NCBI RefSeq assembly: GCF_026236535.1
Contig: NZ_JAHTMW010000009.1
Span: forward strand, 124,001-188,000
DNA length: 64,000 nucleotides
DNA from: Streptomyces sp. SKN60
GTDB lineage: Bacteria > Actinomycetota > Actinomycetes > Streptomycetales > Streptomycetaceae
Reading direction: 5' to 3'
Made by a program: the position numbers and the translations under genes. The notes below the pieces were generated by a model, which did no database searches, was not told the origin of the DNA, and saw only the letters and a program-made list of their open reading frames with translations. Positions within the stretch are counted from its first letter, which is position 1. Every line of letters starts with the position of its first letter. Below, piece by piece: positions 7,446 to 21,617 of the stretch.

Positions 7446-8288
7446 ATGTACGCATCACAGCCGCCCGAGGACTGGTACGAGGCCAACCGGGCCCGCTGGG
7501 ACGAGCGCGTCCCGCTGCACGCCGCCAGCGAGTTCTACGGCCTCGCTGATTTCCGGGCCGGCAAGGACCCCCTGCGCGACTTCGAGCTCGCCGAGGTCGG
7601 CGACGTCACCGGCCGCAGCCTGCTGCACCTGCAGTGCCACATGGGCCAGGACACCCTGTCCTGGGCCCGCCACGGCGCCTCCCGCGTCGTCGGCCTCGAC
7701 TTCTCCGAGCCCGCCGTCGAGACCGCCTGCACCCTCGCGGCCGACCTCGGCCTGGGCCCGGACCGGGCGGCGTTCGTCGCCGCCGACGCCTACGACGCGG
7801 CCGGGGCCGTGCCCGACTCCGCGTACGACATCGTCTACACCGGTGGCGGGGCGCTGTGCTGGCTCCCCGACATCGACCGCTGGGCCGAGACCGCCGCGGC
7901 CCTGGTGGCCCCCGGCGGCTTCCTCTACCTCGCCGAGTTCCATCCGCTCATCGACGTCTTCGACGACGAGACCGGCTCGCGGGTGATCAACGACTACTTC
8001 ACCAGCGACGTGTGGGTGGACACCACCCCCGGCACCTACACGGACATCGAGACCGAGATCGAGACCGTCCACAACCGCAGCGTGGAGTGGCAGCACCCGA
8101 TCGGCGAGGTCGTCACCGCCATCGCCAAGGCGGGCCTGCGCATCGAGTTCCTGCACGAGCACGACGTCACGCTGTTCGAGCGCTACGGCACCCTCAGGCG
8201 CCACGACGACGGTTACTACCGCTTCCCGGCGGACCGTCCCCGTATCCCGCTGATGTACTCGATCAAGGCGTCCAAGCCGGCGGCCTGA
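7446..8288 (+). CDS. class I SAM-dependent methyltransferase
   Basis: A 280-aa cytoplasmic methyltransferase with a Rossmann core. Motif I is recognisable as LLHLQCHMGQDT (about residues 58-69), the acidic loop after strand 2 as VVGLDFS, and motif IV as YDIVYTGGGALCW. The C-terminal part (about 180-275) is a lid with conserved aromatic and histidine residues. The substrate cannot be read from the sequence, and many such proteins act on small molecules. ATG 7446 is chosen over GTG 7428 because it opens MYASQPPEDW, the family-like N-terminus. It is divergent from the S9 peptidase gene. Confidence 0.85.
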   Translation: MYASQPPEDWYEANRARWDERVPLHAASEFYGLADFRAGKDPLRDFELAEVGDVTGRSLLHLQCHMGQDTLSWARHGASRVVGLDFSEPAVETACTLAADLGLGPDRAAFVAADAYDAAGAVPDSAYDIVYTGGGALCWLPDIDRWAETAAALVAPGGFLYLAEFHPLIDVFDDETGSRVINDYFTSDVWVDTTPGTYTDIETEIETVHNRSVEWQHPIGEVVTAIAKAGLRIEFLHEHDVTLFERYGTLRRHDDGYYRFPADRPRIPLMYSIKASKPAA

Positions 8289-8377
8289 CCGGCGCCCCGC
8301 CCGCGTCGGTGCTCATCCGGCTTGCGTGCGGGGCCAGTTGTCGGCGGGATGTCGGTCGCGGTGTCTACGATGTCCGC

Positions 8378-9397
8378 ATGTTCGTATTCGTCGTGGTCGC
8401 CGCCGTCTTCGCCGTGCTCTTCGGGCTCGGCGTGCTGCGCGACCGGCGGCGCTTCAGCAACGCGGTGTACCTCGGACTCGCCGTCAGCTTCCTCGGCCTC
8501 GGGCTGCTCGCCGGGATCGACGAGGCGCCGCACGGCGTGGCCGAGACGGTCATGGTGGTCGGGCTGCTCGTGCTCGCGCTCGGCCCGGTGGCCCTCGCCG
8601 GGCTGCTGTGCGCCAACGGGGTCAAGATGGTCCGCAAGGAGGGCAGACGCCCCGCCAACCTGCTCTCGCTGCTCGCCGGGCTCGGCATCTTCGGCGTCAT
8701 GGGCCTGATGGCCGCCGCCTTCGCCACCGGGTCGCAGACCCTCGGGATCGTCGTCGCCACCCTCCTGATGATCCTCGGCTATGTCTCCTTCCTCTTCCTC
8801 TGCTTCATCGGCTACGCCTTCCTGTACGGCCGGATGCGCATCCGCCGCGACGCCGACTACGTCGTCGTCCTCGGCTCCGGGCTCATAGGCGGCCGCCGGG
8901 TGCCGCCGCTGCTCGCCAGCCGGCTGGAGCGCGGTCGTGAGGTGTACGAGACGCTGGCCCGGCGCCGCGAGGTGGACCGCACCCCGGTCCTGATCACCTC
9001 CGGCGGTCAGGGCCCCGACGAGCAGCTGCCCGAGTCGCACGCCATGGCCGACTATCTGATGGAGCGCGGCTTCCCGGCCGACCGGATCGTGCGCGAGGAC
9101 CGCTCGCGCACCACCGAGGAGAACATGCTCTTCAGCAAGGCCGTGATGGAGGCGGAGCGCCCCGGCTCCGAGTGCGTGATCGTCACCAACAACTTCCACG
9201 CCTTCCGGGCCGCCCTGATGGCCCGGAAGGCGGGGGTGAACGGTCAGGTGGTGGGCTCGCCGACCGCCGCGTACTTCTGGCCGAGCGCGACCATCCGCGA
9301 GTTCGCCGCGGTCTTCCTCCAGTACAAGGCGGTCAACCTGGGAATCTGCGGCTCCCTGGTCCTGCTGGGAGGCCTGGCCCTCGCCTTCACGGGGTGA
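8378..9397 (+). CDS. YdcF/ElyC-like DUF218 membrane protein
   Basis: A 339-aa protein with four or five N-terminal transmembrane helices (about residues 1-150), a DUF218 domain (about 165-310, starting YVVVLGSGL and containing TSGGQGPDEQ and RSRTTEEN), and a final hydrophobic helix. DUF218 proteins are implicated in envelope or lipid-carrier metabolism, but the reaction is not settled. A -10-like TACGAT (8366-8371) ends 6 nt before the ATG, so the transcript is probably leaderless. The frame is open much further upstream, but that extension overlaps the preceding gene and is rejected. Confidence 0.85.
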   Translation: MFVFVVVAAVFAVLFGLGVLRDRRRFSNAVYLGLAVSFLGLGLLAGIDEAPHGVAETVMVVGLLVLALGPVALAGLLCANGVKMVRKEGRRPANLLSLLAGLGIFGVMGLMAAAFATGSQTLGIVVATLLMILGYVSFLFLCFIGYAFLYGRMRIRRDADYVVVLGSGLIGGRRVPPLLASRLERGREVYETLARRREVDRTPVLITSGGQGPDEQLPESHAMADYLMERGFPADRIVREDRSRTTEENMLFSKAVMEAERPGSECVIVTNNFHAFRAALMARKAGVNGQVVGSPTAAYFWPSATIREFAAVFLQYKAVNLGICGSLVLLGGLALAFTG

Positions 9398-9512
9398 GGA
9401 CCGGCCGAGCGGACCATGGGCGACGTACTACCGCATGTCAGACAGCGCGGGAGGTCCTACCCTGGAAGTCCTACCCTGGAGGGCAGGCGGCCCGGCGCGC
9501 GGAGGCGACGTC

Positions 9513-9794
9513 ATGAGAGCACGGCACCACTTCCACATCGACTACCGCGGCCACTCGGTCAGCGCCACCGTCCAGACCGGACACCACCCGGTCGTCGAGA
9601 TCCTGGTCGACGGCAAGGAGACGGGCCACGCGACGAGCCAGGACGACCGCCCGGTCATGGTCCACATCGAGCTGCCGACCGAGCCGCCGACCCCGGTCGT
9701 CGTCCGGGCCACACCCGGCCCGGGGGTGCCGCGCTGCCTGCTGCTCGGCCCGGAGGAGCAGGAGGGCCATGTGATGGCCCCGCGGATCTACTGA
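9513..9794 (+). CDS. conserved hypothetical protein, 93 aa
   Basis: A small protein starting MRARHHFHIDYRGHS, with GGAGG 7 nt before the ATG. Alternating hydrophobic residues suggest a small beta-rich fold. No catalytic motif, signal peptide or membrane helix is seen. An in-frame upstream ATG at 9435 would add 26 low-complexity residues and lacks a good ribosome site. Function unknown. It lies tail-to-tail with the kinase gene. Confidence 0.65.
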   Translation: MRARHHFHIDYRGHSVSATVQTGHHPVVEILVDGKETGHATSQDDRPVMVHIELPTEPPTPVVVRATPGPGVPRCLLLGPEEQEGHVMAPRIY

Positions 9795-9860: not shown

Positions 9861-9876
9861 TCAGCTGAGCCAGGCC
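9853..9876. terminator. perfect 24-bp palindrome over the kinase 3' end
   Basis: The sequence centred on TCAGCTGA reads identically on both strands for 24 bp and includes the kinase stop codon. It lies between convergent genes, so a bidirectional terminator or a protein-binding site are both possible. There is no T-run on either side. Confidence 0.45.
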
Positions 9877-10994
9877 ATCCCGATCAGCAGGAAGACGACG
9901 AAGGCGACCGCACCGGCCACGGCGGCGGTTCTGCGCGGTCTGCGCCGGGATATCGCCGCCAGCGCGTTCTCGGTGGGCGGCTGGGCGCGCCGGGACGTCC
10001 GTGACTGCGGCGGTGTCGGCGCCATCACGGCCGGGCCGGGAGCCGGGGCCGGGGCGGCCTGCGGTGCGTGGTGCGGCGCGCGCGGTGCGGTGTGCGGTGC
10101 CGTGTGCGGTGCCGTGTGCGGTGCCGTGTGCGGTACGGGACGGGGTACGGGCTGCGGTACGGCCGGGGGCAGCGGCATCGGCTGGTCGCGCCACGAACCC
10201 GAGGTGAACCAGTCGGCGATGGCCTGCGCCGAGGGGCGCTGCTCCGGCTGCTTGGCGAGCAGCGACAGCAGGTACGCCTCGAAGGCGGCCGGCATCGGCA
10301 CGCCGAGCTGCCGCGGCGGCGCCGGCGGGGTGTCGATGTGCTGGTAGAGCAGCGCGGTCGCGGTGTCGGCGCGGAACGGCGGCTGTCCGGTGAGCAGTTG
10401 GTAGAGCACGCAGCCCAGCGAGTACACGTCCGAGGCGGGCGAGGCGGGCTGCCCGAGGGCCCGCTCGGGCGCGAGATAGAGGCCGGTGCCGACGATCTGG
10501 CCGGTGGTGGTGAGTCCGGCCGAGGGGTCGTCGACGAAGCGGGCGATGCCGAAGTCGGCGAGCTTCACGGTCCCGTCGGCGTCCATCAGCAGGTTCCCCG
10601 GCTTGATGTCGCGGTGCACCACGCCCTGCCGGTGCGCCGCGGCGAGCCCGGCGGCGGCGTGCGCGGCCACCGTGGCCACCTGCTCGGGCCCGAGCACCAC
10701 CGAACGGCCCCGGTCGCCGGCCAGGCTGTCGCCGGACACCAACTCCATGACGAGGAACAGCTTGCCGTCCCAGGTCCCGAAGTCGAAGACGCCGACCACA
10801 TGCGGATGGCTCAGCCGCGCCGCGGTCTGCGCCTCCATCCGGAACCGCTCGGCCGCCGACGGATCGTGCTCGTGCCCCAGCATCAGCTTCACGGCGACAT
10901 CGCGCCCGAGCACCTCGTCGGTCGCCCGCCACACCTCACCCATGCCGCCACGCCCGACACACACTTGGAGCTGATATCGGTCCGCGACCAGCAC
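9861..10994 (-). CDS. serine/threonine protein kinase, tail-anchored
   Basis: A 377-aa Hanks-type kinase. The kinase domain covers about residues 5-265: glycine loop GRGGMG, catalytic lysine in VAVKLM, HRDIKPGN catalytic loop, DFG in LADFGIA, and APE as LAPERA. A Pro/His/Ala linker follows (about 275-345) with a TAPH repeat encoded by a 12-bp tandem repeat (10090-10136). The last 20 residues form one transmembrane helix ending at the stop. There is therefore no extracellular PASTA or other sensor domain, unlike PknB. The GTG start at 10994 is preceded by a GAAGAAGG run. It is divergent from the CHAT gene, and both promoters share the -10 TACGAT. Confidence 0.92.
   Translation of the reverse strand: MLVADRYQLQVCVGRGGMGEVWRATDEVLGRDVAVKLMLGHEHDPSAAERFRMEAQTAARLSHPHVVGVFDFGTWDGKLFLVMELVSGDSLAGDRGRSVVLGPEQVATVAAHAAAGLAAAHRQGVVHRDIKPGNLLMDADGTVKLADFGIARFVDDPSAGLTTTGQIVGTGLYLAPERALGQPASPASDVYSLGCVLYQLLTGQPPFRADTATALLYQHIDTPPAPPRQLGVPMPAAFEAYLLSLLAKQPEQRPSAQAIADWFTSGSWRDQPMPLPPAVPQPVPRPVPHTAPHTAPHTAPHTAPRAPHHAPQAAPAPAPGPAVMAPTPPQSRTSRRAQPPTENALAAISRRRPRRTAAVAGAVAFVVFLLIGMAWLS
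10090..10136. repeat. 12-bp tandem repeat, about 3.9 copies
   Basis: Tandem GTGTGCGGTGCC units inside the kinase gene encode the repeating TAPH linker. The array is in phase with the codons, so length variation would not break the frame. Confidence 0.85.
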
Positions 10995-11139
10995 CTGAGA
11001 CCCACCCTTCTTCTCGACGCCCCATCGTAGAGCGGGTTTTGAAGGGCTCTTGCGTCGCGTCCGGATCAAGGGACACGGCCCGTCAGGGAAGCTCGGGGTC
11101 GCCTTCACTACGATGGGTGTCCGACGAATGGGGGGATTC
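10995..11139. promoter_or_regulatory. divergent promoter region, kinase/CHAT genes
   Basis: A -10-like TACGAT is present on the + strand at 11109-11114 and on the - strand at 11029-11024, each inside the shared 10-mer CTACGATGGG. Predicted leaders are about 20 nt for both genes. No good -35 is seen on either side. The matched elements suggest that kinase and protease genes are expressed together. Confidence 0.55.
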
Positions 11140-14100
11140 GTGACGGACGCGCGCCGCGGGACCGAGGACGAGGGACCGGCCCAGCCCGAGATCCCCGAAA
11201 AACCCGAGAACCCCGAGGTTCGACGCCAGGCCGAAGCCCTGCTCGACCTCGCCCGCCGGTTCACGTCGCGCGTACTGACCGAGGACGAGGCCCTGCGCCG
11301 CGTGCGGGACCCCGCCCTCGAACTCTCGGAGGCCGCCCTGGGCTCGGTCGTGCTGGGGGCGTTACGCGTCGTCCGGGCCGGCACGCCGGGCGACGCGGTG
11401 CCGGCGCTCACCCTCGTACTGGAGGCCGCGCGGTCCCGCTGGGGCGCCCGGCAGAGAACGCCGTGGTGGTGGGCGGCCGACGCCTATGTCGAGGCGGCAC
11501 GCCTCGCCCTGGTGGACGTGGCGGACGGGCTGCTGTTCCGCCGGGCCTGCGCGGTGGCGGACGAACAGATCGCCGTTCTCCGCGACGGCGGCCGCGCCGA
11601 GAACGTCGCCGAACTCGCCGAGACGCTGTTCGCCGCGGGTCTGCTGCGCGTCACGCCGTATCTGGGAGGCATGGCGGGACTGACCTTCCAGTCGGCGTAC
11701 GCCCTGTGGCGTGAACGCAGAGCCCGGCACCGTGCCGTCCACCCCGACGACTCCCTCCCGTCGGAGACCGCGGAGATGCCGCCTCCCCTGGCCGCGGTCG
11801 AGGAAGGCGTCGGCTATCTGCGCGAGGCCGTCGAGCTGTCGCGCGGGCACGAACGGGCGCGGGTCCTCAAGGCGCTGGCCGAGGCTCTGACCATGGTCGC
11901 CGGTCTTCGGCAGGAGTCGTACGACGAGGAGATCCGGGCCCTGGCCCGCGAGGCGTTCGACCTGCTGGATCCCGTCAAGGACCCGCTCACCCTCCTCTAC
12001 CTGCTGAGGATCCTGCATCTGCTCGGTGAGCTCTCGCTGCCCGCCGACCTCCAGGACCTGCTGCCGCTGCCGTTGGCCGCCATCCGGGCCCGGCAGGGGG
12101 CGCAGGAGGCCGCGGGCGTCCTCTCCGAGGCGCTCACCCTCGCCGAGGAGGCCCGCCGGCCCGATCTGGAGTTCCAGCTCCTCCAGGCCGCCGACCGCGA
12201 GCTGCCCGAACTGCCCGGGGACGCGTACCGCCGGCGCCGCTGGGCCAGCGAAGTGCACTGTCTCGCGGGCGAACGCCTGGGCTGTTTCGCGGGCCGGATC
12301 CGCGTGGCGGAGGCCGCGGACCTGATCCGCGAACGCGCGGCGGAAGAGGGCTGGACCCCCGAGGAGCGCGCGGCAACCCTCGTCCATCTGGCGGCACATG
12401 CCCGCGGGAGCGGCGAGGAGCACCTCGGCCGCGCTCTGACGGCGGAGGCTCGGGAGCTGGCGCCGGAGCTGCGCCGACGGTGCGGTCCCGCACTGGACTA
12501 TCTGGACGCGACGCTCTCGTACGAGACGGGCATCGGCACCCCGGCGGGACAGGAGGCCCTCGCCGCCCGCCACTTCGCCGACGCGCTCGCCTCCTACGCG
12601 CTGTGCGGCCAGCTCGATCTGGCGCTGAACAGCCTCGACGCCGCACTGCGCAGCGTGCAGGCGGCCGACGCGAACGACGCCGGCGCGGCCGCGGCCGCGC
12701 TGATTCCCGCCTCCGTATGGCTCCGGGGCGGGTTCGACGAGGTCATCGGCTGGAAACTGCGCGATCTCTACCAGCAGTTGGTCCTCGCACTGAGCGGCCC
12801 CACCCTCTCGTACGGTCTGATGCTGGCGATCCATCAGGCCGCCAAGGGCGTCGACTTCACGTTCCGCACCGGACGGCCCGGCCCGTTCGCACCCTCCGAA
12901 CGGCTCTCGCGCTTTCTCGCCCGTATCCGCGCGGACGAGTCACCGTCGCTGTCACCGTCGTCGGCGCCATCGTTCCCGCCTGAACCGCTCGGCGAGCCCG
13001 AACTCCCGGGCGCTGAGGAAGCCATGCTCTTCTACGTGGCCACCGGCGAATCGGAGCCCGGCAGCGACGCCCAGACGCTGCGCCGCAACGCACAGCGCGC
13101 CGCGGACCGGTGGATCAGCCAGGAACTCGTGGCCGAGGCGCCCGCGGACGGCATTCCGATGATGTTCCCCGACGAGCTGCAGGCGCTCCTGCCCGAGGAC
13201 ACGGTGCTGCTCTCGCTCTTCCTCGCCCACACGCGCCGGGACGGCTCCGACGCGCCGGTGGCCTCGCTCTCCGGCCTCGCGGTGACCCGCGACGACATGC
13301 GGCACCACACCGTGATCCTCTCCGATTTCGAAGCCGGGCTCATCCGCTTCACGAAGGCGGGGCACACCCTCTCCGCCCACCCGGTGGCGTTCCACGTCGC
13401 CGAGCTACGGCAGGCCGTCGTCGCGGACCCGCTGCACCGCCAGGTCGGCCGTCAGGCGCAGGAGCGGCTCCGACAGGACGGCGTCACGCATCTGGCGGCC
13501 TTCACCACCGCCCTCGACGACTGGCGGGCCCAGGGGAAGCGCCATCTCTGCATCTGGCCCAACGGCCCCTTGCACTACGTCCCTTATCACCTGCTCGACG
13601 TCGACGGCCGTCCGCTCGCCGACGACTGGACCGTCACGCAGGTGCCGAGCCTGGGTTTCCTCCGGTCGCCGGCACCCGGCAGTTCGCCCGCACCCGGCGG
13701 TCCGCGGGCCCCTGGGCGGGGACTTCTCGCCTTCGCGTCCGGCGCCGGAGGCGCCCCGCACGGTTTCCCCGCCCAGGACGACCTGGAGACGCATGCCGCC
13801 CGGGTCGCCGCGGCGATGGGCGGCCGTGCCGTGCTGGGGGCCGCGGCGACACCGCGACGGCTCCTCGCCGAACTCCCCGGGGCGCGCTACGTCCACGTGG
13901 CCGCGCACGGCGCGCACAACGAGTGGGCCTCCTGGTACCAGTGCCTGTTCCTGTCGCCGGACCCGGACAACGACGGTCGCGTCTTCGCCCACGACATCCT
14001 CCGGGCGGACCTGCGGGGCGTCGAACTCGTGACGATGAGTTCCTGCGAGTCCGCCCTGGGGCGTTTCGACGTCAACGACAACCTGCGCGGCCTGCCCGCC

Positions 14101-14343
14101 GCCTTCCTGTCCGCCGGGGCCTCGGCCGTCATCGGCTGCCTGTGGCCGGTCCACCCCCAGGTGGCCACGGATTTCTTCGGGACCCTTTACGAGCACCTCG
14201 CACGGACGCCGGACCGGCGGGCCGCCTTCCGCGCCGCCCAGACGGGCGTCCGAGGCCGCCACCCGGCATACCGGGACTGGGGCTCGTTCTGTTTCATCGG
14301 CGACTGGCGCCAGTCGAACGCGAACCACGGAGCTGCCACGTGA
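11140..14343 (+). CDS. TPR-CHAT domain protein (caspase-like protease)
   Basis: A 1067-aa protein. About residues 30-640 are alpha-helical repeats of TPR type. The C-terminal 330 or so residues are a CHAT domain, the caspase-like peptidase fold of separase relatives. It shows the PNGPLHYVPYHLL segment, catalytic histidine in VAAHG (H923) and catalytic cysteine in SSCESA (C969), so both active-site residues are present. GTG 11140 is chosen because a GGGGGGA ribosome site (11130-11136) sits just before it. The frame opens earlier, at 11050. Codon 75 is the rare leucine codon TTA (11362-11364), implying bldA tRNA dependence. It overlaps the next gene by GTGA. TPR-CHAT proteases serve in programmed death and CRISPR-linked defence (family knowledge); its substrate here is unknown. 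Confidence 0.88.
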   Translation: MTDARRGTEDEGPAQPEIPEKPENPEVRRQAEALLDLARRFTSRVLTEDEALRRVRDPALELSEAALGSVVLGALRVVRAGTPGDAVPALTLVLEAARSRWGARQRTPWWWAADAYVEAARLALVDVADGLLFRRACAVADEQIAVLRDGGRAENVAELAETLFAAGLLRVTPYLGGMAGLTFQSAYALWRERRARHRAVHPDDSLPSETAEMPPPLAAVEEGVGYLREAVELSRGHERARVLKALAEALTMVAGLRQESYDEEIRALAREAFDLLDPVKDPLTLLYLLRILHLLGELSLPADLQDLLPLPLAAIRARQGAQEAAGVLSEALTLAEEARRPDLEFQLLQAADRELPELPGDAYRRRRWASEVHCLAGERLGCFAGRIRVAEAADLIRERAAEEGWTPEERAATLVHLAAHARGSGEEHLGRALTAEARELAPELRRRCGPALDYLDATLSYETGIGTPAGQEALAARHFADALASYALCGQLDLALNSLDAALRSVQAADANDAGAAAAALIPASVWLRGGFDEVIGWKLRDLYQQLVLALSGPTLSYGLMLAIHQAAKGVDFTFRTGRPGPFAPSERLSRFLARIRADESPSLSPSSAPSFPPEPLGEPELPGAEEAMLFYVATGESEPGSDAQTLRRNAQRAADRWISQELVAEAPADGIPMMFPDELQALLPEDTVLLSLFLAHTRRDGSDAPVASLSGLAVTRDDMRHHTVILSDFEAGLIRFTKAGHTLSAHPVAFHVAELRQAVVADPLHRQVGRQAQERLRQDGVTHLAAFTTALDDWRAQGKRHLCIWPNGPLHYVPYHLLDVDGRPLADDWTVTQVPSLGFLRSPAPGSSPAPGGPRAPGRGLLAFASGAGGAPHGFPAQDDLETHAARVAAAMGGRAVLGAAATPRRLLAELPGARYVHVAAHGAHNEWASWYQCLFLSPDPDNDGRVFAHDILRADLRGVELVTMSSCESALGRFDVNDNLRGLPAAFLSAGASAVIGCLWPVHPQVATDFFGTLYEHLARTPDRRAAFRAAQTGVRGRHPAYRDWGSFCFIGDWRQSNANHGAAT

Positions 14344-15053
14344 CCCTTCTCGAACTGCCCCTGCCCGTGCCCCCGCTCCACGAGATCGACCTCGTGGCCG
14401 TGGACCGGCTCCAGTCACCCGCTCCCCAGCCCCGTATCGAGGGACGGGTGTCGCTCAGCACGGCCGTCGTCCATCCGCTGACGCCGGAGGAGGCGGCCGG
14501 AGGCGAGGCGGAATGGCTCGGCTTCCTGACGGCGGAAGCCCCGCACAGCGCCTACTTCCTCCTCAGCCTCACCTGCGCGTTCCGTCCCCCGGGGAACGGC
14601 GATCCGTTCGCCGACGCGGCAGTGGGCGTCCTCCTGGAGTCCCCCGACGAGCCGGCCGACCGACAGCCGATCGCCTGGTCGATCTCCCCCAAGAAGCGCT
14701 CCCACCCGGTCGAACGGTCCGGCTCCATCGCGCTCAGCGCCAGTCTCGCGATCGTCGAGACCACCCTCGAGCTCACCCCCGGCCAGGGCCGTGAGGACAT
14801 CTCCGTCATCGGAATGGGCGAAAGGGACAGCGACCCGGAGTGGCGCCTCCAGGCGACCGGCCGCCGCCCCCTCATCGGCGACGAGACCTTCACGATGATC
14901 GTCAAAGCCGCCGCCGGCGCCCCCGTCCAGGCCCACGTCACCGTCGCCGCCACCATCAGACACCGCCGCTTCGGCCTGATCCCCTACCGCGCGGACCTCC
15001 CCACCGCCCTCCGGACCATCAACCTGCAACGATGTCTCGGCTCAGGCCCCTGA
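14340..15053 (+). CDS. unrecognised 237-aa partner of the CHAT protease
   Basis: Coupled to the CHAT gene by a 4-nt GTGA overlap, so the two are made together. The product has no signal peptide or membrane helix. It alternates hydrophobic and polar residues in a pattern suggesting mostly beta strands, with a basic C-terminal segment (HRRFGLIPYRADLP) and a conserved-looking GDETF turn. I do not recognise the family. Genes beside CHAT proteases often encode substrates, inhibitors or sensors, which would fit but is inference. The last seven codons and the stop lie inside the left copy of the tRNA-derived repeat (15031-15111), so its 3' end is shared with the integration site. Confidence 0.7.
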   Translation: MTLLELPLPVPPLHEIDLVAVDRLQSPAPQPRIEGRVSLSTAVVHPLTPEEAAGGEAEWLGFLTAEAPHSAYFLLSLTCAFRPPGNGDPFADAAVGVLLESPDEPADRQPIAWSISPKKRSHPVERSGSIALSASLAIVETTLELTPGQGREDISVIGMGERDSDPEWRLQATGRRPLIGDETFTMIVKAAAGAPVQAHVTVAATIRHRRFGLIPYRADLPTALRTINLQRCLGSGP

Positions 15054-15111
15054 CCTGGTCTTGCGGCTGTCGGGGTGGCGGGATTTGAACCCACGACCTC
15101 TTCGTCCCGAA
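15031..15111. repeat. left attachment-site copy: displaced 3' half of tRNA-Pro(CGG)
   Basis: These 81 bp match 21505-21585 with two differences, and 15046-15111 is exact over 66 bp. The repeat contains the tRNA from the anticodon loop to its 3' end plus downstream flank. No tRNA 5' half follows: identity ends in the anticodon loop. This is the layout left by site-specific integration into a tRNA gene. Confidence 0.88.
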
Positions 15112-15130
15112 TGACGTTCGGTCCGGATCG

Positions 15131-16099
15131 TCACCGGCCGGTGTGCGCCAGCGCCGCCAGGTGGCGTTCGGTGTCGAGGGCGGCCTGGCAGCCGCTGGCG
15201 GCGGCGGTGATGGCCTGGCGGTAGGTGTGGTCGACGACGTCGCCGGCGGCGAAGACACCGGGGAGGTTTGTGCGCGTCGAGGGGGACTCCACCTTGATGT
15301 AGCCCTCGCTGTCGAGGTCGATCTGGCTGGTGAAGAGTTCGGTGCGCGGGTCGTGGCCGATGGCGATGAACAGGCCGGTGGCGTCGAGGTCGCGGGTCTT
15401 GCCGGTGATGACATCGCGGAGGACGACGCCGGCGAGCATGCCGTTCTCTTCCTTGAGTTCGGCGATCTCGCTGTCGAAGGCGAAGGAGATCTTGTCGTCG
15501 GCGAACGCGCGGTTCTGCATGACCTGGGAGGCGCGCAGGGTGGAGCGGCGGTGGACGACGGTGACGGAGCGGGCGAAGCGGGTGAGGAAGGTGGCTTCCT
15601 CCATGGCGGTGTCGCCGCCGCCGACCACGACGATGTCGCGGTCGCGGAAGAAGAACCCGTCGCAGGTGGCGCACCAGGACACCCCGCGGCCGGACAGTTC
15701 GTCCTCCTTGGGGAGGCCGAGCTTGCGGTAGCCGGAGCCGGTGGCGATGATCACGGTCCTCGCGCGGTGGACGGTGCCGGCGGAGTCGGTCAGCCGCTTG
15801 ATGTCGCCGGTGAGGTCCACCTCGACGATGTCGTCGTCGATCATCTCGGCGCCGAACTTCTCGGCCTGGGCCCGCATGTTGTCCATGAGGTCGGGGCCGT
15901 CGATGCCGGTCGGGAAGCCGGGGAAGTTCTCGACCTCGGTGGTCGTGGTGAGCGAGCCGCCGACGAAGATCGAGCTGCCGAAGAGCAGCGGCTTGAGCTG
16001 GGCGCGGGCCGTGTAGAGCGCGGCGGTGTATCCGGCGGGGCCGGAGCCTATGACGATGACCTCGCGGACGTCGTCGGTGGCGGCGGGGGTGTCGGTCAC
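15131..16099 (-). CDS. trxB: thioredoxin reductase
   Basis: A 322-aa cytoplasmic flavoprotein that passes electrons from NADPH to thioredoxin. It has the N-terminal FAD site GSGPAGYTAA, the redox pair in CATC (about residues 148-151), the NADPH site VVGGGDTA and the C-terminal FAD motif VFAAGDV. It lies 4 nt after arsC on the same strand, with AGGAGG inside the arsC 3' end, so the two genes form an operon. Arsenate reductases of the neighbouring type need thioredoxin, so this copy most likely serves arsenate reduction and is extra to the housekeeping enzyme expected elsewhere. It is the leftmost island gene, ending 19 bp from the attachment repeat. Confidence 0.93.
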   Translation of the reverse strand: MTDTPAATDDVREVIVIGSGPAGYTAALYTARAQLKPLLFGSSIFVGGSLTTTTEVENFPGFPTGIDGPDLMDNMRAQAEKFGAEMIDDDIVEVDLTGDIKRLTDSAGTVHRARTVIIATGSGYRKLGLPKEDELSGRGVSWCATCDGFFFRDRDIVVVGGGDTAMEEATFLTRFARSVTVVHRRSTLRASQVMQNRAFADDKISFAFDSEIAELKEENGMLAGVVLRDVITGKTRDLDATGLFIAIGHDPRTELFTSQIDLDSEGYIKVESPSTRTNLPGVFAAGDVVDHTYRQAITAAASGCQAALDTERHLAALAHTGR

Positions 16100-16103
16100 G
16101 GGG

Positions 16104-16520
16104 TCATGCCTCCTGCGTGGCGTCGATCTCGGCGATCAGGGACTCGATGCGGGTCTTGATCTCGTCGCGGATGGGACGGACGGCCTCGACGCTCTTGCCG
16201 TCGGGGTCTTCCAGCTCCCAGTTGAGGTACTTCTTGCCGGGGAAGATCGGGCAGGCGTCGCCGCAGCCCATGGTGATGACGTAGTCGGACGCTTGGACGG
16301 CCTCGGTGGTGAGGATCTTGGGGGCCTGGCCGGCGATGTCGATGCCGAGTTCGGCCATGGCTTCCACGGCGGCCGGGTTGATCTGATCGGCGGGGAGGGA
16401 GCCCGCGGAGCGGACCTCGATGCGGTCGCCGGCGCGGTCGGAGAGGAATCCGGCGGCCATCTGGGAACGGCCGGCGTTGTGGACGCAGACGAACAGGACG
16501 GAGGCGAGCGAGGCAGGCAT
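16104..16520 (-). CDS. arsC: thioredoxin-coupled arsenate reductase
   Basis: A 138-aa reductase with the low-molecular-weight phosphatase fold, which converts arsenate to arsenite. The CX5R loop VCVHNAGRSQ (about residues 11-20) carries the nucleophilic cysteine. Further cysteines in MGCGDACP (about 83-90) fit the resolving residues of thioredoxin-dependent ArsC. Length is normal. It is followed by trxB in the same operon and divergent from arsR1 and acr3, so reduction and export are expressed from one control region. Confidence 0.94.
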   Translation of the reverse strand: MPASLASVLFVCVHNAGRSQMAAGFLSDRAGDRIEVRSAGSLPADQINPAAVEAMAELGIDIAGQAPKILTTEAVQASDYVITMGCGDACPIFPGKKYLNWELEDPDGKSVEAVRPIRDEIKTRIESLIAEIDATQEA

Positions 16521-16790
16521 GAGGGCGTTCCTTTGGTGCGGTCGTGCAAGGGGTCACGTGCCGAGGCCGGTGGCATGGCAGTGCGGTGACGCGGGTGTCG
16601 AGGCTGCTGCGGACGCACGGCGATGCCGGTGTCCGGCAGGTCGGGTAACGGTCCGGCCGGGCCGTGATGGCCGCAGGCGGCCGGCTGCGAGGAGGCGGTC
16701 ATGGCAGGGGCCTCCTTCGACGGCCATAAGTCAGCCCAAGATGTCAGTACGAACTGGTGTCAGTGTCGACTGATGTGAGAGTATCAGTCC
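16521..16790. promoter_or_regulatory. divergent arsC/arsR1 control region with inverted operator pair
   Basis: Two 14-bp sites, TCAGTGTCGACTGA (16760-16773) and its reverse complement (16800-16813), flank the arsR1 start, the second inside its codons. They are probable ArsR1 operators. On the - strand an AAGGAGG (16709-16715) precedes an ATG at 16702 that opens a frame running into arsC in another phase and containing a TTA codon (16648-16646). It may be a leader or a gene relic. Confidence 0.55.
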
Positions 16791-17099
16791 ATGATGACGT
16801 CAGTCGACACTGATCTGATTCGGGTGCTGGGCGACCCCCTGCGCCTCCGGATCGTGACCCTGCTAGCCCGCGAGACGCTGTGCACCACCCACCTCGTGGA
16901 GGAGACCGGCGCCAAGCAGACCAACCTCTCCAACCACCTGAGAGTCCTGCGCGAGGCCGGGGTCGTCGAGACCGAGCCCTGCGGCCGGTTCACGTATTAC
17001 CGGCTCAAGCCGGACGTCATCGAGCAGCTCGCCGGCCAGTTGGCCGAGCTGGCCGAGTCCGCCCGTAACGCCGCCGAGAACAAGAGGGCCTGTCCGTGA
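16791..17099 (+). CDS. arsR: ArsR family metalloregulator (arsR1)
   Basis: A 102-aa winged-helix repressor that should leave DNA on binding arsenite or antimonite. The recognition helix is QTNLSNHLRVLREAG (about residues 42-56) and the wing is GRFTYYRL. One cysteine lies before the helix (TLCTTHL) and others in the EPCGR wing and at the C-terminus (ACP). The classical CVC pair is absent, so its metal site differs from arsR2 and arsR3. It starts ATGATG; either codon could be used. The GTGA overlap with acr3 makes it the first gene of an arsR-acr3 operon. Confidence 0.9.
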   Translation: MMTSVDTDLIRVLGDPLRLRIVTLLARETLCTTHLVEETGAKQTNLSNHLRVLREAGVVETEPCGRFTYYRLKPDVIEQLAGQLAELAESARNAAENKRACP

Positions 17100-18196
17100 C
17101 TCCACCCGCTCCCGTGACCGCTGCCGAAGAACAGTCGGTGGTCGCGAAGCTGTCGACGCTCGACCGCTTCCTCGCCGTCTGGATCCTGCTCGCCATGGCG
17201 CTCGGCCTGGGCCTCGGCCGGCTGATTCCGGGCCTGAATGATGCCCTGGCGAAGGTCGAGGTCGGCGGTGTCTCGCTGCCGATCGCGGTCGGCCTGCTGA
17301 TCATGATGTACCCGGTGCTCGCGAAGGTCCGCTACGACAAGCTCGACGCCGTCACCGGCGACCGCAAGCTGATGGTCTCGTCGCTGGTGATCAACTGGGC
17401 CCTCGGGCCCGCGGTCATGTTCGCCCTTGCCTGGATCTTCCTGGCGGACCTGCCCGAGTACCGCACCGGCCTGATCATCGTGGGCCTCGCCCGCTGCATC
17501 GCCATGGTGATCATCTGGAACGACCTCGCCTGCGGAGACCGCGAGGCCGCCGCCGTCCTCGTCGCCCTCAACAGCGTCTTCCAGGTCCTGGCCTTCGGCC
17601 TGCTGGGCTGGTTCTACCTCGACATCCTGCCCGGGTGGCTGGGCCTCGGCGAGGGTGAGACCCTCGACATCTCCATGTGGAAGATCGCCCTCAACGTCGT
17701 CATCTTCCTCGGCATCCCGCTGCTCGCCGGCTTCCTCACCCGCCGCATCGGCGAGAAGAGGCTCGGCCGCGAGTCCTACGAGGTGAAGTTCCTGCCGAAG
17801 ATCGGGCCGTGGGCGCTGTACGGGCTGCTGTTCACGATCGTCATCCTCTTCGCTCTACAGGGGAAGACGATCACCTCGCAGCCCCTCGACGTGGCCCGCA
17901 TTGCGCTTCCGCTCCTCGTGTACTTCGCCGTGATGTGGTTCGGCACCTTCGCCCTCGGCAAGGCGATCGGCCTGCACTACGACCGCACCGCCACCCTCGC
18001 CTTCACCGCCGCCGGCAACAACTTCGAGCTCGCCATCGCCGTCGCCATCGCCACCTTCGGCGTCACCAGCGGTCAGGCCCTGTCCGGCGTCGTCGGCCCG
18101 CTCATCGAGGTCCCCGTCCTGGTCGCGCTCGTCTACGTGTCGCTGGCCTGGCGCAGGAAGTTCGCCGCCCCGGCCCACGTGCCCACGCGGCGGTAG
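17096..18196 (+). CDS. acr3: ACR3-type arsenite efflux permease
   Basis: A 366-aa integral membrane protein with about ten transmembrane helices that exports arsenite using the proton motive force. The conserved ACR3 cysteine lies in VGLARCIAMVIIWN (about residues 125-138), the site involved in arsenite transport, and the family segment AAGNNFELAIAVAIA is present near the C-terminus. Length is typical. It is coupled to arsR1 by a GTGA overlap. It is often labelled arsB, but the sequence is ACR3, not the NhaA-fold ArsB. Confidence 0.93.
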   Translation: MTPPAPVTAAEEQSVVAKLSTLDRFLAVWILLAMALGLGLGRLIPGLNDALAKVEVGGVSLPIAVGLLIMMYPVLAKVRYDKLDAVTGDRKLMVSSLVINWALGPAVMFALAWIFLADLPEYRTGLIIVGLARCIAMVIIWNDLACGDREAAAVLVALNSVFQVLAFGLLGWFYLDILPGWLGLGEGETLDISMWKIALNVVIFLGIPLLAGFLTRRIGEKRLGRESYEVKFLPKIGPWALYGLLFTIVILFALQGKTITSQPLDVARIALPLLVYFAVMWFGTFALGKAIGLHYDRTATLAFTAAGNNFELAIAVAIATFGVTSGQALSGVVGPLIEVPVLVALVYVSLAWRRKFAAPAHVPTRR

Positions 18197-18254
18197 ACGC
18201 GGTGCCGTGCGCTCCCGGCCGTCCCGCTCCTTCCGGCGGGCGCGGCCGGCGCGG

Positions 18255-18617
18255 TCATTCCGAGGCGGCCTTGATCAGCAGGCGGCCCATGGCGGCGAGC
18301 ACGGCGGGTTCGAAGCGGTAGTAGACCCAGGTGCCGCGTCGCTCGGAGGAGAGCAGGCCGGCCTCCTTGAGCTTCTTCAGGTGGTGCGACACGGTCGGCC
18401 CCGACACGCCCACGTCGGAGATGGCGCAGACGCACGGCTGCCCCTCCTCGTACGAGGCGATCGTGGACAGGAGCTGGAGGCGGATCGGATGGGCGAGGAC
18501 GTGGAACGCCTTCGCGGTCCGCTCGGCCTCGTCTGCGGTCAGGGGGCGCTCGTTCAGGGGCGTGGCGGAGAGCTCGGCCTCGACCCGGGGCAATGGAAGC
18601 CTGGGGGAGTTCGGCAT
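18255..18617 (-). CDS. ArsR family regulator (arsR2), duplicate lacking the N-terminal Cys pair
   Basis: A 120-aa winged-helix repressor with recognition helix SGPTVSHHLKKLKEAGLL and a CVC metal-binding motif (QPCVCAISD). It is closely related to arsR3: roughly 90 bp around the recognition helix (about 18333-18421 versus 19233-19328) are almost identical. Unlike arsR3 it has no N-terminal CC, which forms part of the arsenite site in corynebacterial ArsR proteins (family knowledge). Its metal response may be altered. An operator-like box sits 5 bp upstream of its start. It faces acr3 tail-to-tail. Confidence 0.88.
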   Translation of the reverse strand: MPNSPRLPLPRVEAELSATPLNERPLTADEAERTAKAFHVLAHPIRLQLLSTIASYEEGQPCVCAISDVGVSGPTVSHHLKKLKEAGLLSSERRGTWVYYRFEPAVLAAMGRLLIKAASE

Positions 18618-18621
18618 TCCC

Positions 18622-18642
18622 CTATGTTGACATACATCGAAT
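18622..18642. promoter_or_regulatory. ArsR operator-like box upstream of arsR2
   Basis: Shares the core CTATGTTGACA with boxes at 19529-19550 and 19591-19613. Its position directly before the arsR2 start suggests autoregulation. Confidence 0.55.
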
Positions 18643-18659
18643 CAGGCGGCGCCGTGGCG

Positions 18660-19163
18660 TCAGGCGATGTGAGGGCTGCGGCGTTCGACGAGCACGGTGT
18701 CGCGCCAGCGGCCGTGGTGCAGTGCGATGCGTTCGCGGGTGCCGATGATCCGGAAGCCGGCCCGCTGGTGGACGGCGAGGCTGGCGGCGTTCTCGGGGAA
18801 GATTCCGGACTGGATCGTCCAGATCCCGGCCGCCTCCGTCGAGTCGATCAGCGCCTTGAGCAGGGACGCGGCGACGCCCCGCCCGCGCGCGTCGGGGTGT
18901 ACGTAGACGGAGTGCTCGACCACACCCGCGTACGCGGCCCGCTCGGAGACCTTGCTCGCGGCGACCCAGCCGTGCACACGGCCGGTCTCGTCGACGGCGG
19001 CGAAGCGGTGCCTGGGCAGTCTGGCGGCGTCGAACCGCTCCCAGGTGGGAGCGGCGGTCTCGAAAGTGGCGTTGCCCTCGTCGATCCCGGCCTGGTAGAT
19101 CGCCAGGACCTGCTCGGCGTGCTCCGCCGCGAGGGGTACGACGGCCGCGGTGGAGGCGGTCAC
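18660..19163 (-). CDS. arsN: GNAT N-acetyltransferase, ArsN1-like
   Basis: A 167-aa acetyltransferase of the phosphinothricin/arsinothricin type. Early motif IYQAGIDEGNATFET (about residues 17-31) is the substrate-side signature of this family, and HPDARGRGVAASLL (about 93-106) is the acetyl-CoA pyrophosphate loop. In ars operons these enzymes N-acetylate the arsenic antibiotic arsinothricin (family knowledge). Phosphinothricin acetylation is the alternative. The GTG start overlaps the arsR3 stop by 4 nt, so the gene is coupled to arsR3 and repressed by it. Confidence 0.85.
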   Translation of the reverse strand: MTASTAAVVPLAAEHAEQVLAIYQAGIDEGNATFETAAPTWERFDAARLPRHRFAAVDETGRVHGWVAASKVSERAAYAGVVEHSVYVHPDARGRGVAASLLKALIDSTEAAGIWTIQSGIFPENAASLAVHQRAGFRIIGTRERIALHHGRWRDTVLVERRSPHIA

Positions 19164-19525
19164 GCGGCGGCTGCCTTGGTGAGCAGCTGCCCCATCGCCG
19201 CGAGTACGGCCGGCTCGACCCGGTAGTGCACCCAGGTGCCGCGTCGCTCGGAGGAGAGCAGGCCGGCCTCCTTCAGCTTCTTCAGGTGGTGCGACACGGT
19301 CGGCCCCGACACGCCCACGTCGGAGATGTCGCACACGCACGCCTCGCCGCCCTCGTGGGAGGCGACCGCCGAGAACAGGCGCAGGCGGATCGGGTTGCCC
19401 AGCGCGTCGAACATCTTCGCGGTCCGCTCGGCCTCCTCGGAGGTCAGCGGGCGCTCGTTCAGCGGCGGGCAGCAAGGGGCGGCGGCCTCAGGCTGGATCA
19501 GCGGGAACTCGGTGCTATTCGACAT
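19160..19525 (-). CDS. ArsR family regulator (arsR3)
   Basis: A 121-aa winged-helix repressor with an N-terminal cysteine pair (PCCPP, residues 18-19) and a CVC motif (residues 63-65). These match the three-cysteine arsenite site of corynebacterial ArsR. The recognition helix is identical to that of arsR2. ATG 19525 is chosen because it overlaps the operator and starts MSNSTEF; a longer frame reaches 19606 but crosses both operators. It is followed by arsN in an overlapping operon and is divergent from arsO. Confidence 0.9.
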   Translation of the reverse strand: MSNSTEFPLIQPEAAAPCCPPLNERPLTSEEAERTAKMFDALGNPIRLRLFSAVASHEGGEACVCDISDVGVSGPTVSHHLKKLKEAGLLSSERRGTWVHYRVEPAVLAAMGQLLTKAAAA

Positions 19526-19546
19526 GTGTCTATGTTGACACATGTC
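19521..19546. promoter_or_regulatory. ArsR operator with perfect 10-bp arms
   Basis: GACATGTGTC (19521-19530) and its exact reverse complement (19537-19546) flank the 6-bp spacer TATGTT. The site covers the arsR3 start codon, so bound repressor would block arsR3-arsN expression directly. Confidence 0.7.
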
Positions 19547-19586
19547 GAACCAGTAGAGGGGGGCGGGGTTACCAGGCAACTTCGAT

Positions 19587-19653
19587 GAATGTCTATGTTG
19601 ACGCATGTCAATTCAGGTGTCATGCTGGCCGAGCAATACATCGACAGATGTCG
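19587..19653. promoter_or_regulatory. second ArsR-type box and CGACA/TGTCG repeat upstream of arsO
   Basis: A box with the GTCTATGTTGAC core (about 19591-19602, continuing to 19613) and a short inverted repeat (CGACA 19642-19646, TGTCG 19649-19653) lie in the arsO leader. They probably bring arsO under the same ArsR control. Confidence 0.5.
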
Positions 19654-19672
19654 AAATAGAGAGGGGAACGTC

Positions 19673-21046: not shown

Positions 21047-21263
21047 CCGACCTGACCACCCGGGGCCCAGCGCGCAGGTCGATACGGCTTGGCAGCCGTG
21101 AACCGGTCGTGGTGCGGCCGTTCGCCGAGGGCGACTCCGTTGCGCAGTTGACGCGTCTGCTTGTATGCGTGCCGCACGCCACGTCCGACCCCGATATCCG
21201 GATCTTGCAGGGACTCCCCGAACGGGTCGGTCGCCCGCAGGTCCGGTTGTGCTGGTCGGTCAT
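21000..21263 (-). CDS. small Cys/His-rich protein, chimeric C-terminus
   Basis: An 87-aa frame with ATG 21263 preceded by GAGGGGAC. The first 34 residues hold a zinc-knuckle-like set, CGRPTRSGSPC then ACGTH, of a kind common on phages and integrative elements. After THT the frame crosses the presumed junction (about 21162) into the antisense of the acetyltransferase fragment and arsO, so the rest is probably not native. It may be a relic of the mobile element that carried the ars genes. Confidence 0.4.
   Translation of the reverse strand: MTDQHNRTCGRPTRSGSPCKIRISGSDVACGTHTSRRVNCATESPSANGRTTTGSRLPSRIDLRAGPRVVRSVTIRRTAPGCWCRAG
21043..21162 (+). pseudogene. truncated GNAT acetyltransferase start
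   Basis: A GTG overlapping the arsO stop (GTGA) opens a frame whose residues 24-40 (VVRPFAEGDSVAQLTRLL) look like the N-terminus of a GNAT acetyltransferase. After LL, at about 21162, the similarity ends abruptly and the frame continues into unrelated basic sequence. The acetyl-CoA loop is missing, so this is a 5' fragment, probably cut by a recombination junction inside the island. Confidence 0.55.
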
Positions 21264-21431
21264 GTGCACTGGTCCCCTCTGGCGGAAAGCCGATCGGGAT
21301 CTTCTCCCGGATTGCTCCCGAGGGAGGGGAACGCGGAAATCGGTCGCGCGCTACGTGGCGGTGGAGCGGGCTCGGCGGAAGGCCCCCGATGCCGAGCGCA
21401 GGCCCCGCTGCCGACGGCGTCGGACCCGCTC

Positions 21432-21471
21432 TGGGAGCCGGATCCTGAAGTCGGCTCCCACACGGCTCCCA
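21432..21471. repeat. GGCTCCCA repeats near the right attachment site
   Basis: TGGGAGCC occurs at 21432-21439, and its complement GGCTCCCA at 21453-21460 and 21464-21471, two of them 11 bp apart. Short repeats beside an attachment core are typical of integrase arm-binding sites. That role is inferred. Confidence 0.4.
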
Positions 21472-21490
21472 AGGTGCCCAGAAAACCACT

Positions 21491-21526
21491 CAGGGGCCTG
21501 ATCCGATGTCTCGGATCAAGCCCCTG
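21491..21526 (-). terminator. tRNA-Pro terminator hairpin
   Basis: A 16-bp stem (21491-21506 with 21511-21526, one mismatch) and a TGTC loop lie just 3' of the tRNA gene. Half of this hairpin is inside the duplicated attachment repeat; at the left copy (15031-15050) the partner arm is absent. Confidence 0.75.
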
Positions 21527-21585
21527 ACCTGGTCTTGCGGCTGTCGGGGTGGCGGGATTTGAACCCACGACCTCTTCGTCCCGAA
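21505..21585. repeat. right attachment-site copy overlapping tRNA-Pro(CGG)
   Basis: Matches 15031-15111 with two differences; 21520-21585 is an exact 66-bp repeat. The match starts in the tRNA anticodon loop and runs through its 3' end. The island 15112-21519 lies between the two copies. Confidence 0.88.
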
Positions 21586-21617
21586 CGAAGCGCGCTGCCA
21601 AGCTGCGCTACACCCCG
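21544..21617 (-). tRNA. tRNA-Pro (anticodon CGG)
   Basis: A full cloverleaf on the - strand: 7-bp acceptor stem CGGGGTG/CACCCCG, D stem GCGC/GCGC, anticodon stem CTTCG/CGAAG with loop TTCGGGA (anticodon CGG), T stem GTGGG/CCCGC with loop TTCAAAT, and discriminator A. CCA is not encoded. Its 3' half is duplicated at 15031-15111. Confidence 0.97.

What the first reader, a model, noticed from the sequence alone, without database searches (positions are those of the whole stretch)
9861..15053. Divergent Ser/Thr kinase / TPR-CHAT protease / unknown-protein module beside a tRNA integration site
Seen: a kinase gene divergent from a 1067-aa TPR-CHAT gene with intact H923 and C969, coupled by GTGA to a 237-aa protein of no family I recognise, with identical -10 10-mers on both strands and the tRNA-Pro attachment site starting inside the last gene. 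Known: CHAT proteases with TPRs act in programmed death and anti-phage systems, such as the Craspase of type III-E CRISPR. Inference: kinase signal to protease activation to cleavage of or by the partner, a possible new abortive-infection or developmental-death module.
Basis: partly seen in the sequence, partly recalled or inferred. Interest (0 to 1): 0.8.

Follow-up and report, generated by a model that had tools for sequence, protein, structure and literature searches.

The report
Streptomyces caspase-like protease with paired partner
A soil bacterium carries a caspase-like protease gene tightly coupled to a partner gene of no known family; the two travel together in many Streptomyces and a few relatives and probably form a small cell-death or defence device, while the kinase next door is only a neighbour.

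Summary
The genes are as described: a CHAT protease (11140-14343, His923 and Cys969 present) overlapping by GTGA a 237-aa protein with no Pfam, NCBIfam, PHROG or PADLOC family (14340-15053), divergent from a Ser/Thr kinase (9861-10994), with a tRNA-Pro attachment repeat starting inside the last gene. Pfam did not detect the claimed TPRs.

The module is two genes, not three. A partner profile gave 72 non-redundant loci: 35 have a long CHAT gene within 5 kb (25 of 33 tandem pairs share an in-frame [AG]TGA overlap), 20 instead an EAD1-CHAT gene, sometimes with a second EAD1 protein. A kinase like this one lies within 5 kb in 2 of 72. In two relatives the same kinase sits at the same place, divergent from a glycosyltransferase, without CHAT or partner. 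The arsenic-type island lies on the other side of the repeat; 2 of 35 other CHAT/partner loci searched have a tRNA in the fetched stretch.

Best reading: a two-component CHAT-protease/partner conflict or death module in which the partner is the protease's bound substrate or regulator. Two partner models (sharing one alignment) most resemble the leukocidin beta-sandwich, without sequence support; a cytosolic pore-former is the boldest reading left open.

The parts
11140..14343 (+). CHAT-domain protease gene, 1067 aa, GTG start; N-terminal ~780 residues without a Pfam family, probably helical repeats (inference)
   Evidence: Translation; Pfam CHAT 2.5e-40; alignments
13495..14304 (+). CHAT (caspase-like peptidase) domain, residues 786-1055
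   Evidence: Pfam PF12770
13906..13908 (+). catalytic His923 codon (motif AAHGA)
   Evidence: Sequence; conserved in long CHAT relatives
14044..14046 (+). catalytic Cys969 codon (motif SSCES)
   Evidence: Sequence; conserved in long CHAT relatives
14340..14343 (+). GTGA stop/start overlap coupling the two genes
   Evidence: Sequence; 25 of 33 tandem pairs have an in-frame [AG]TGA overlap
14340..15053 (+). partner protein, 237 aa, unnamed family, predicted beta-sandwich, no transmembrane helix by hydropathy
14688..14819 (+). low-confidence segment of the partner (residues 117-160): candidate cleavage or hairpin region (inference)
   Evidence: pLDDT under 50 for 117-160
11108..11117 (+). -10-like 10-mer upstream of the CHAT gene
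11021..11030 (-). identical 10-mer upstream of the kinase
9861..10994 (-). Ser/Thr kinase with a hydrophobic C-terminal segment; neighbour, not part of the module
   Evidence: Pfam; synteny; hydropathy
15023..15114 (.). left copy of the tRNA-Pro attachment repeat; holds the last nine sense codons of the partner
21497..21588 (.). right copy of the repeat, overlapping the 3' end of the intact tRNA-Pro

Best explanation
A two-gene module: a CHAT (caspase-like) cysteine protease and a dedicated, closely coupled beta-sandwich partner. Most likely the long N-terminus of the protease senses or scaffolds a trigger, the CHAT domain becomes active, and the partner, made in step with it, is its immediate substrate or the regulator that holds it in check. 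The outcome is cell death or growth arrest in a conflict setting. In a derived branch the same partner works with a short EAD1-CHAT protein, which could recruit other effectors through EAD1. The kinase is a resident chromosomal gene beside which the pair was inserted, next to tRNA-Pro. Shown: the pairing, the overlap, the intact dyad, the swap of CHAT type, the absence of the kinase elsewhere. Inferred: binding, activation, cleavage, and the death or defence role.
For: A partner profile finds 41 of 392 Streptomyces genomes, the window's included, and 5 of 394 genomes of the class, in 4 of 137 genera, the window's included. Of 72 non-redundant loci (80 less 8 duplicates), 35 have a long CHAT gene and 20 an EAD1-CHAT gene within 5 kb; the window genome has only 2 CHAT genes. 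Reciprocally, of 8 strong CHAT-domain matches (E<1e-70, the window's included) in 150 Streptomyces, 7 have the partner adjacent and the eighth lies at a contig end. 25 of 33 tandem pairs have an [AG]TGA overlap in the partner's frame. His and Cys are kept in the long CHAT proteins aligned (exception: an extra 446-aa CHAT gene in L088, aligned at Cys only). Partner tree of 64 rows: all 20 EAD1-CHAT rows lie in one branch with 9 CHAT-less rows and 2 long-CHAT rows, 99/96 support; L089 and L091 carry other CHAT proteins. EAD1 found by Pfam in 4 of 4 small CHAT proteins scanned, in a DEAD-helicase protein and a Clp_N protein. A plasmid copy lies beside annotated AbiEi/AbiEii genes and transposases.
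Against: No trigger, binding, cleavage or phenotype is known. 17 of 72 loci have no CHAT gene called within 5 kb. In 11 of 19 small EAD1-CHAT proteins aligned the dyad is replaced (R and P for H and C), in a twelfth the Cys, and at 9 loci of the same chromosomal place the CHAT gene is gone while the partner stays, so the partner has some role without proteolysis there. No defence-gene enrichment was shown. No match in the two viral collections searched.
Confidence: 0.6

Rival explanations
1. The partner is not a substrate but a sensor or adaptor: a constant component that recognises the trigger and switches on the CHAT protease, whose real targets lie elsewhere or are brought in by EAD1.
For: It is the constant element while the CHAT protein and EAD1 proteins change; it outlives CHAT proteins without the dyad, as a binding or sensing part could. 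A constant-component design is described for EACC1 systems (passages of PMC7159879).
Against: No EAD1 or known sensor domain by Pfam, no TM helix by hydropathy in the six members printed; in long-CHAT loci it is usually the only linked protein and so the obvious substrate.
Confidence: 0.35
2. One reading: the kinase signals to the protease, which acts with or on the partner.
For: Divergent adjacency and an identical 10-mer upstream of both genes.
Against: Kinase within 5 kb of the partner in 2 of 72 loci, the other (L086) a different 586-aa kinase 1.9 kb upstream of the partner, on a 4.9-kb contig where no CHAT gene was found; none beside L063, L064, L066; same kinase without CHAT in L129 and L133.
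Confidence: 0.05
3. The partner is a cytosolic pore-former of leukocidin-like fold released by CHAT cleavage, an analogue of caspase and gasdermin.
For: Models of the window partner and of a homologue 29% identical to it (L160) both rank leukocidin-fold toxins first: Foldseek best E 1.1e-4 and 1.5e-4; VIA Z 10.2-9.0 with 50 of the 50 rows shown, rmsd 3.0-4.0 over 153-171 residues, and Z 10.0-8.8 with 47 of the 50 rows shown. The low-confidence segment lies mid-chain, where the stem lies in that fold (stem place recalled).
Against: TM-scores by query are only 0.17-0.38 and identity 5-14%; the two models used the same 32 sequences, so they are not independent; three adhesin sandwiches tie at Z 9.4-8.8 for L160 and a small Thermus protein and a macroglobulin domain rank among the Foldseek rows; no profile match in PDB sequences at E<=10 nor a leukocidin Pfam match in 32 members; the mid segment is short in EAD1-type partners and not clearly amphipathic.
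Confidence: 0.15

Closest known systems
Craspase (Csx29 TPR-CHAT with Csx30), type III-E CRISPR
   Same: CHAT cysteine protease with a long N-terminus whose substrate is coded at the same locus (passages of PMC10028731).
   Different: NCBIfam Csx29 model gives 15.1 bits against a cut-off of 300, CHAT region only; the partner matches no family; Csx30 itself was not compared.
Borvo (BovA)
   Same: CHAT protease with an anti-phage role (table row in PMC10952713); weak PADLOC match to the CHAT part, E 6.9e-6.
   Different: Match covers only residues 918-1038; Borvo is a single gene as I recall, here there is a conserved second gene.
Bacterial gasdermin with caspase-like protease
   Same: Protease gene adjacent to the gene of its executor; CHAT is counted among the caspase-like proteases there (passages of PMC9612521).
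   Different: Partner shows no gasdermin family match in Pfam; its models rank another beta-sandwich first.
EACC1 two-gene system and EAD-linked conflict systems (Kaur et al. 2020)
   Same: Actinobacterial two-gene set of a constant component and a caspase-superfamily peptidase; EAD1 links other effectors (passages of PMC7159879).
   Different: EACC1 is a single-TM domain encoded 5' of the caspase gene; this partner has no TM segment by hydropathy, is 3' of the CHAT gene in the long-CHAT tandem loci, and matches no Pfam family.

Membership tests
CHAT peptidase (PF12770) | Profile match above curated cut-off | tested here: met
   139.2 bits against 24
CHAT peptidase (PF12770) | His and Cys dyad | tested here: met
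   His923, Cys969
TPR-CHAT | Tetratricopeptide repeats in the N-terminus | tested here: inconclusive
   No TPR match in Pfam at E<=0.1; L091, a relative with another CHAT type, has TPRs
Craspase Csx29 | Csx29 NCBIfam model over cut-off | tested here: not met
   15.1 bits against 300
Craspase Csx29 | Linked gRAMP (Cas7-11) and CRISPR array | not tested
   The rest of the 64 kb was not annotated for this
Borvo | Full-length BovA match | tested here: inconclusive
   Partial CHAT-only match, 23.3 bits
EACC1 system | EACC1 domain with a single TM helix in the small protein | tested here: not met
   No Pfam family in the window partner at E<=10 (that an EACC1 model is in this Pfam copy is recalled); highest 19-residue hydropathy 1.18-1.58 in the six members printed
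EAD-linked conflict system | EAD1 on system components | tested here: inconclusive
   Absent from the three window proteins; present in 4 of 4 small CHAT proteins of relatives scanned and in two further proteins
Leukocidin-type pore-forming protein | Sequence-profile match | tested here: not met
   No match at E<=10 in PDB sequences, no leukocidin family in Pfam
Leukocidin-type pore-forming protein | Beta-sandwich fold with mid-chain stem hairpin | tested here: inconclusive
   hairpin not resolved
Gasdermin | Gasdermin fold | tested here: inconclusive
   Not among the 50 rows shown in each, which does not exclude it
CATRA systems | CATRA domains | tested here: inconclusive
   No Pfam match for the partner; presence of CATRA models in this Pfam copy is recalled, not checked

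The most novel reading that the evidence does not exclude
A bacterial death device parallel to caspase and gasdermin but built on another pore-former: a CHAT protease whose co-translated partner is a cytosolic leukocidin-fold protein, held inactive until cleavage in its flexible mid-segment, and re-usable with EAD1-linked CHAT proteins.
Probability: 0.15. Interest if true: 0.85.

Novelty: new variant of a known kind. Interest (0 to 1): 0.52.

Why it matters
It defines a conserved CHAT-protease partner family that has no entry in the four family libraries searched and is labelled 'hypothetical protein' in the one annotated RefSeq record seen (a plasmid), and shows that the partner has been kept while the protease type changed. 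That gives a compact two-gene system in which to test how caspase-like proteases are used in multicellular bacteria, and a specific candidate substrate. If the partner proves to be a pore-former, it would be another, independent route to protease-gated lysis besides gasdermins.

Tried and rejected
Kinase as a component: rejected on distribution and synteny. tRNA or island membership as a general trait: rejected; the island at the tRNA lies to the right of the left repeat. Defence-island test: my script listed 225 neighbour genes (90 aa or more, within 7.5 kb, window left out) of the long-CHAT loci and printed the nearest 145; 114 of these, from 33 loci, were scanned. 28 PADLOC families matched at E<=1e-10 (25 shown), four of them in two members and the other 21 shown in one, among them SduA and four MADS genes; no control set was run, so it shows nothing firm. 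Pfam on the same 114: mostly metabolic families, two each of rve and DDE_Tnp_1 (25 of 115 families shown). Partner in viruses: no match in either collection; viral fold library: nothing at E<=0.001. Sequence link of the partner to solved structures: none at E<=10. CHAT against solved structures: none for the single protein, only weak matches to 'CHAT domain protein' chains, E about 0.7-0.8, for a profile. Gasdermin was not among the fold rows shown. Amphipathic hairpin in the mid-segment: not convincing. Papers: nine full-text searches were answered; among the papers listed (lists capped at 12-25, some of thousands of hits) no title or abstract start was about this pair; the library holds open-licence papers only. 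Whole-CHAT genome searches gave no answer, so a fragment was used. Gene calls in relatives come from a simple codon-usage script, not a standard gene finder, so starts are approximate; names such as S9 peptidase, YdcF-like, acyl-CoA synthetase and the arsenic genes are by eye. An earlier count of 29 of 33 junctions looked at letters only; the in-frame recount is 25 of 33.
Full report
What is there. The window lies in an unnamed 7.87-Mb genome; its genus is Streptomyces, since same-genus contigs reappear under that name (for example the 120,559-base contig of G147 and of L143). The finding's genes are real: a kinase (9861-10994, minus), a CHAT protease (11140-14343, plus) and a partner of 237 aa (14340-15053, plus) coupled by GTGA. 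Pfam gives the CHAT domain E 2.5e-40 over residues 786-1055; no TPR is detected in it. The partner has no family in Pfam, NCBIfam, PADLOC or PHROGs; among 32 members only two stray Pfam matches appear, one member each, at E 0.058 and 0.29.

Two genes, not three. Partner homologues were found in 14 of 150 Streptomyces with the single sequence, 41 of 392 with a profile of 11 rows, and 5 of 394 genomes of the class, in 4 of 137 genera, the window's own genome counted each time; a scan of named genomes gave 32 loci, including Dactylosporangium and Pseudofrankia. I fetched neighbourhoods, called genes with a codon-usage script, and removed 8 duplicates of 80 loci, leaving 72 with the window. Within 5 kb, 35 have a long CHAT gene (in L085 and L088 convergent, in L080 and L083 split or broken, in L089 with a gene between) and 20 an EAD1-CHAT gene downstream. 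Of the other 17, two keep only the N-terminal part of the CHAT protein joined to the partner's C-terminal part (L078, L084), nine are partners alone at one conserved place beside an acyl-CoA-synthetase-like gene (L026, L074, L075, L163, L165, L166, L167, L169, L171), and six are fragments, decayed or distant members (L027, L086, L087, L090, L092, L164). Of 33 loci with the CHAT gene upstream in tandem, 25 have an [AG]TGA stop/start overlap in the partner's frame. Conversely, 8 CHAT-domain matches at E<1e-70 in 150 Streptomyces, the window's included, comprise 7 with the partner beside them; the eighth contig (G120) ends 28 bases after the match. Two weaker CHAT matches (G110, G054) each have a neighbour with a weak partner match (E 3e-7 and 3.9e-5).

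The kinase is a bystander. A kinase like P0001 (phmmer E<=1e-10) lies within 5 kb of the partner in 2 of 72 loci, the window and L086, where it is a different, 586-aa protein and no CHAT gene was found on the 4.9-kb contig. The window's nearest partner relatives, L063, L064 and L066 (up to 83% identity), have no kinase beside them. At the tRNA-Pro locus of two relatives, L129 and L133, the order S9 peptidase, methyltransferase, YdcF-like, small DUF, kinase is kept, with two or three extra genes between methyltransferase and YdcF-like (kinase 70-72% identical), but the kinase is divergent from a 280-aa family 2 glycosyltransferase (Pfam for L133), and neither CHAT nor partner matches there at E<=1e-10. 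Other relatives fetched at that locus (G005, G019) keep the peptidase and methyltransferase without a kinase match; G012, G006, G010 and G023 stretches did not reach or do not keep that block. G015, the genome of L129, has its CHAT/partner pair about 2.9 Mb away. The simplest reading is that the pair arrived between the kinase and the tRNA.

tRNA and island. The 92-nt repeat 15023-15114 / 21497-21588 flanks a 6.4-kb island of thioredoxin reductase, ArsC-, ArsR- and Acr3-like genes (by eye); no integrase was seen among its ORFs by eye. The island is to the right of the left repeat, so the pair is outside it. The last nine sense codons of the partner lie in the repeat, beyond where the nearest relatives' proteins end or diverge, so the partner's end was joined to the tRNA flank. 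tRNA-Pro carries partial copies (43-46 nt) in G015, G005, G006 and G023 as well, an ordinary hotspot. Of 35 other CHAT/partner loci searched (34 long-CHAT loci and the plasmid copy), L021 and L145 show a tRNA in the fetched stretch.

Variation and catalysis. In the long CHAT proteins the His and Cys are kept wherever aligned (one extra 446-aa CHAT gene in L088 aligns only at Cys). Among 19 small EAD1-CHAT proteins aligned the dyad is intact in 7 (L022, L160, L025, L028, L076, L095, L077), changed to R and P in 11, all at the acyl-CoA-synthetase locus, and Cys to Arg in L170. EAD1 is supported by Pfam in 4 of 4 small CHAT proteins scanned (CHAT itself over its cut-off in 3 of the 4), in a DEAD-helicase protein (L025) and in a Clp_N-repeat protein (L095). 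A partner tree of 64 of the 72 loci (those with enough sequence) puts all 20 EAD1-type rows, with 9 CHAT-less rows and the long-CHAT rows L096 and L079, in one branch (99/96); L091 is a very long branch, and the tool warns that deep joins of long rows may be false. L089 and L091 carry yet other CHAT proteins. A plasmid copy in Streptomyces sp. NBC_01724, 43.7% identical, lies beside annotated AbiEi/AbiEii genes and transposases.

What the partner may be. AlphaFold models of the window partner (pLDDT 75.3, pTM 0.73; residues 117-160 under 50) and of L160 (pLDDT 83.7, pTM 0.82) are beta-rich; both used the same 32 sequences. Both rank leukocidin-fold pore-forming toxins first: Foldseek E 1.1e-4 and 1.5e-4, with 3 and 24 chains at E<=0.001, one of the 24 being a small Thermus protein; VIA Z 10.2-9.0, 50 of 50 rows shown, and 10.0-8.8, 47 of 50 rows shown, the other three being staphylococcal adhesin sandwiches. 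Against this: TM-scores are low (0.17-0.38 by query), identity 5-14%, no sequence-profile match exists, the mid-segment is short in EAD1-type partners and not clearly amphipathic, and no TM segment shows by hydropathy in the six members printed. I read it as a sandwich of leukocidin-like arrangement with function unproven.

Mechanism and standing. The nearest working models are Csx29/Csx30, where a CHAT protease cuts the product of a linked gene (passages of PMC10028731), and caspase-like proteases with bacterial gasdermins (passages of PMC9612521). EAD1-linked systems and the EACC1/caspase pair of actinobacteria are described in PMC7159879 (passages; outline) and later EAD work in PMC8195603 (passages); the partner is not EACC1 by Pfam or by TM content. 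I conclude a two-gene CHAT/partner module, substrate or regulator, probably for death or conflict; the kinase relay is not supported. Nine searches of the open-licence library listed, within their capped lists, no paper about this pair.

Noticed in passing
window 15115-21496: A 6.4-kb arsenic-resistance-like island (thioredoxin reductase, ArsC, ArsR, Acr3-like, GNAT, monooxygenase by eye) between tRNA-Pro repeats, with no integrase seen by eye; two ArsR-like genes lie on a 300-nt repeat (82%).
   Followed up: partly
window 15023-15053: The last nine sense codons of the partner lie in the tRNA-flank repeat, beyond the family-conserved end.
   Followed up: yes
L078:6153-7787, L084:1101-2228, L027 near 8113-9643: Forms without the CHAT domain in which the N-terminal part of the CHAT protein is joined to, or left next to, the partner's C-terminal part; seen in three genomes.
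   Followed up: partly
L023, L024, L067, L069, L071, L072, L073, L154, L156, L159, L161 (small CHAT gene): EAD1-CHAT proteins whose catalytic His and Cys are replaced, beside an open partner gene; at the same place in related strains the CHAT gene is gone.
   Followed up: partly
L172:1982-9672 (plasmid NZ_CP109170.1): CHAT/partner pair on a plasmid beside annotated AbiEi/AbiEii toxin-antitoxin genes and transposases.
   Followed up: no
L133:2089-2373: Fragment that looks like the end of a tyrosine recombinase directly beside tRNA-Pro in a relative (by eye).
   Followed up: no
L088:8739-10079: A second CHAT-like gene of 446 aa near a convergent CHAT/partner pair.
   Followed up: no
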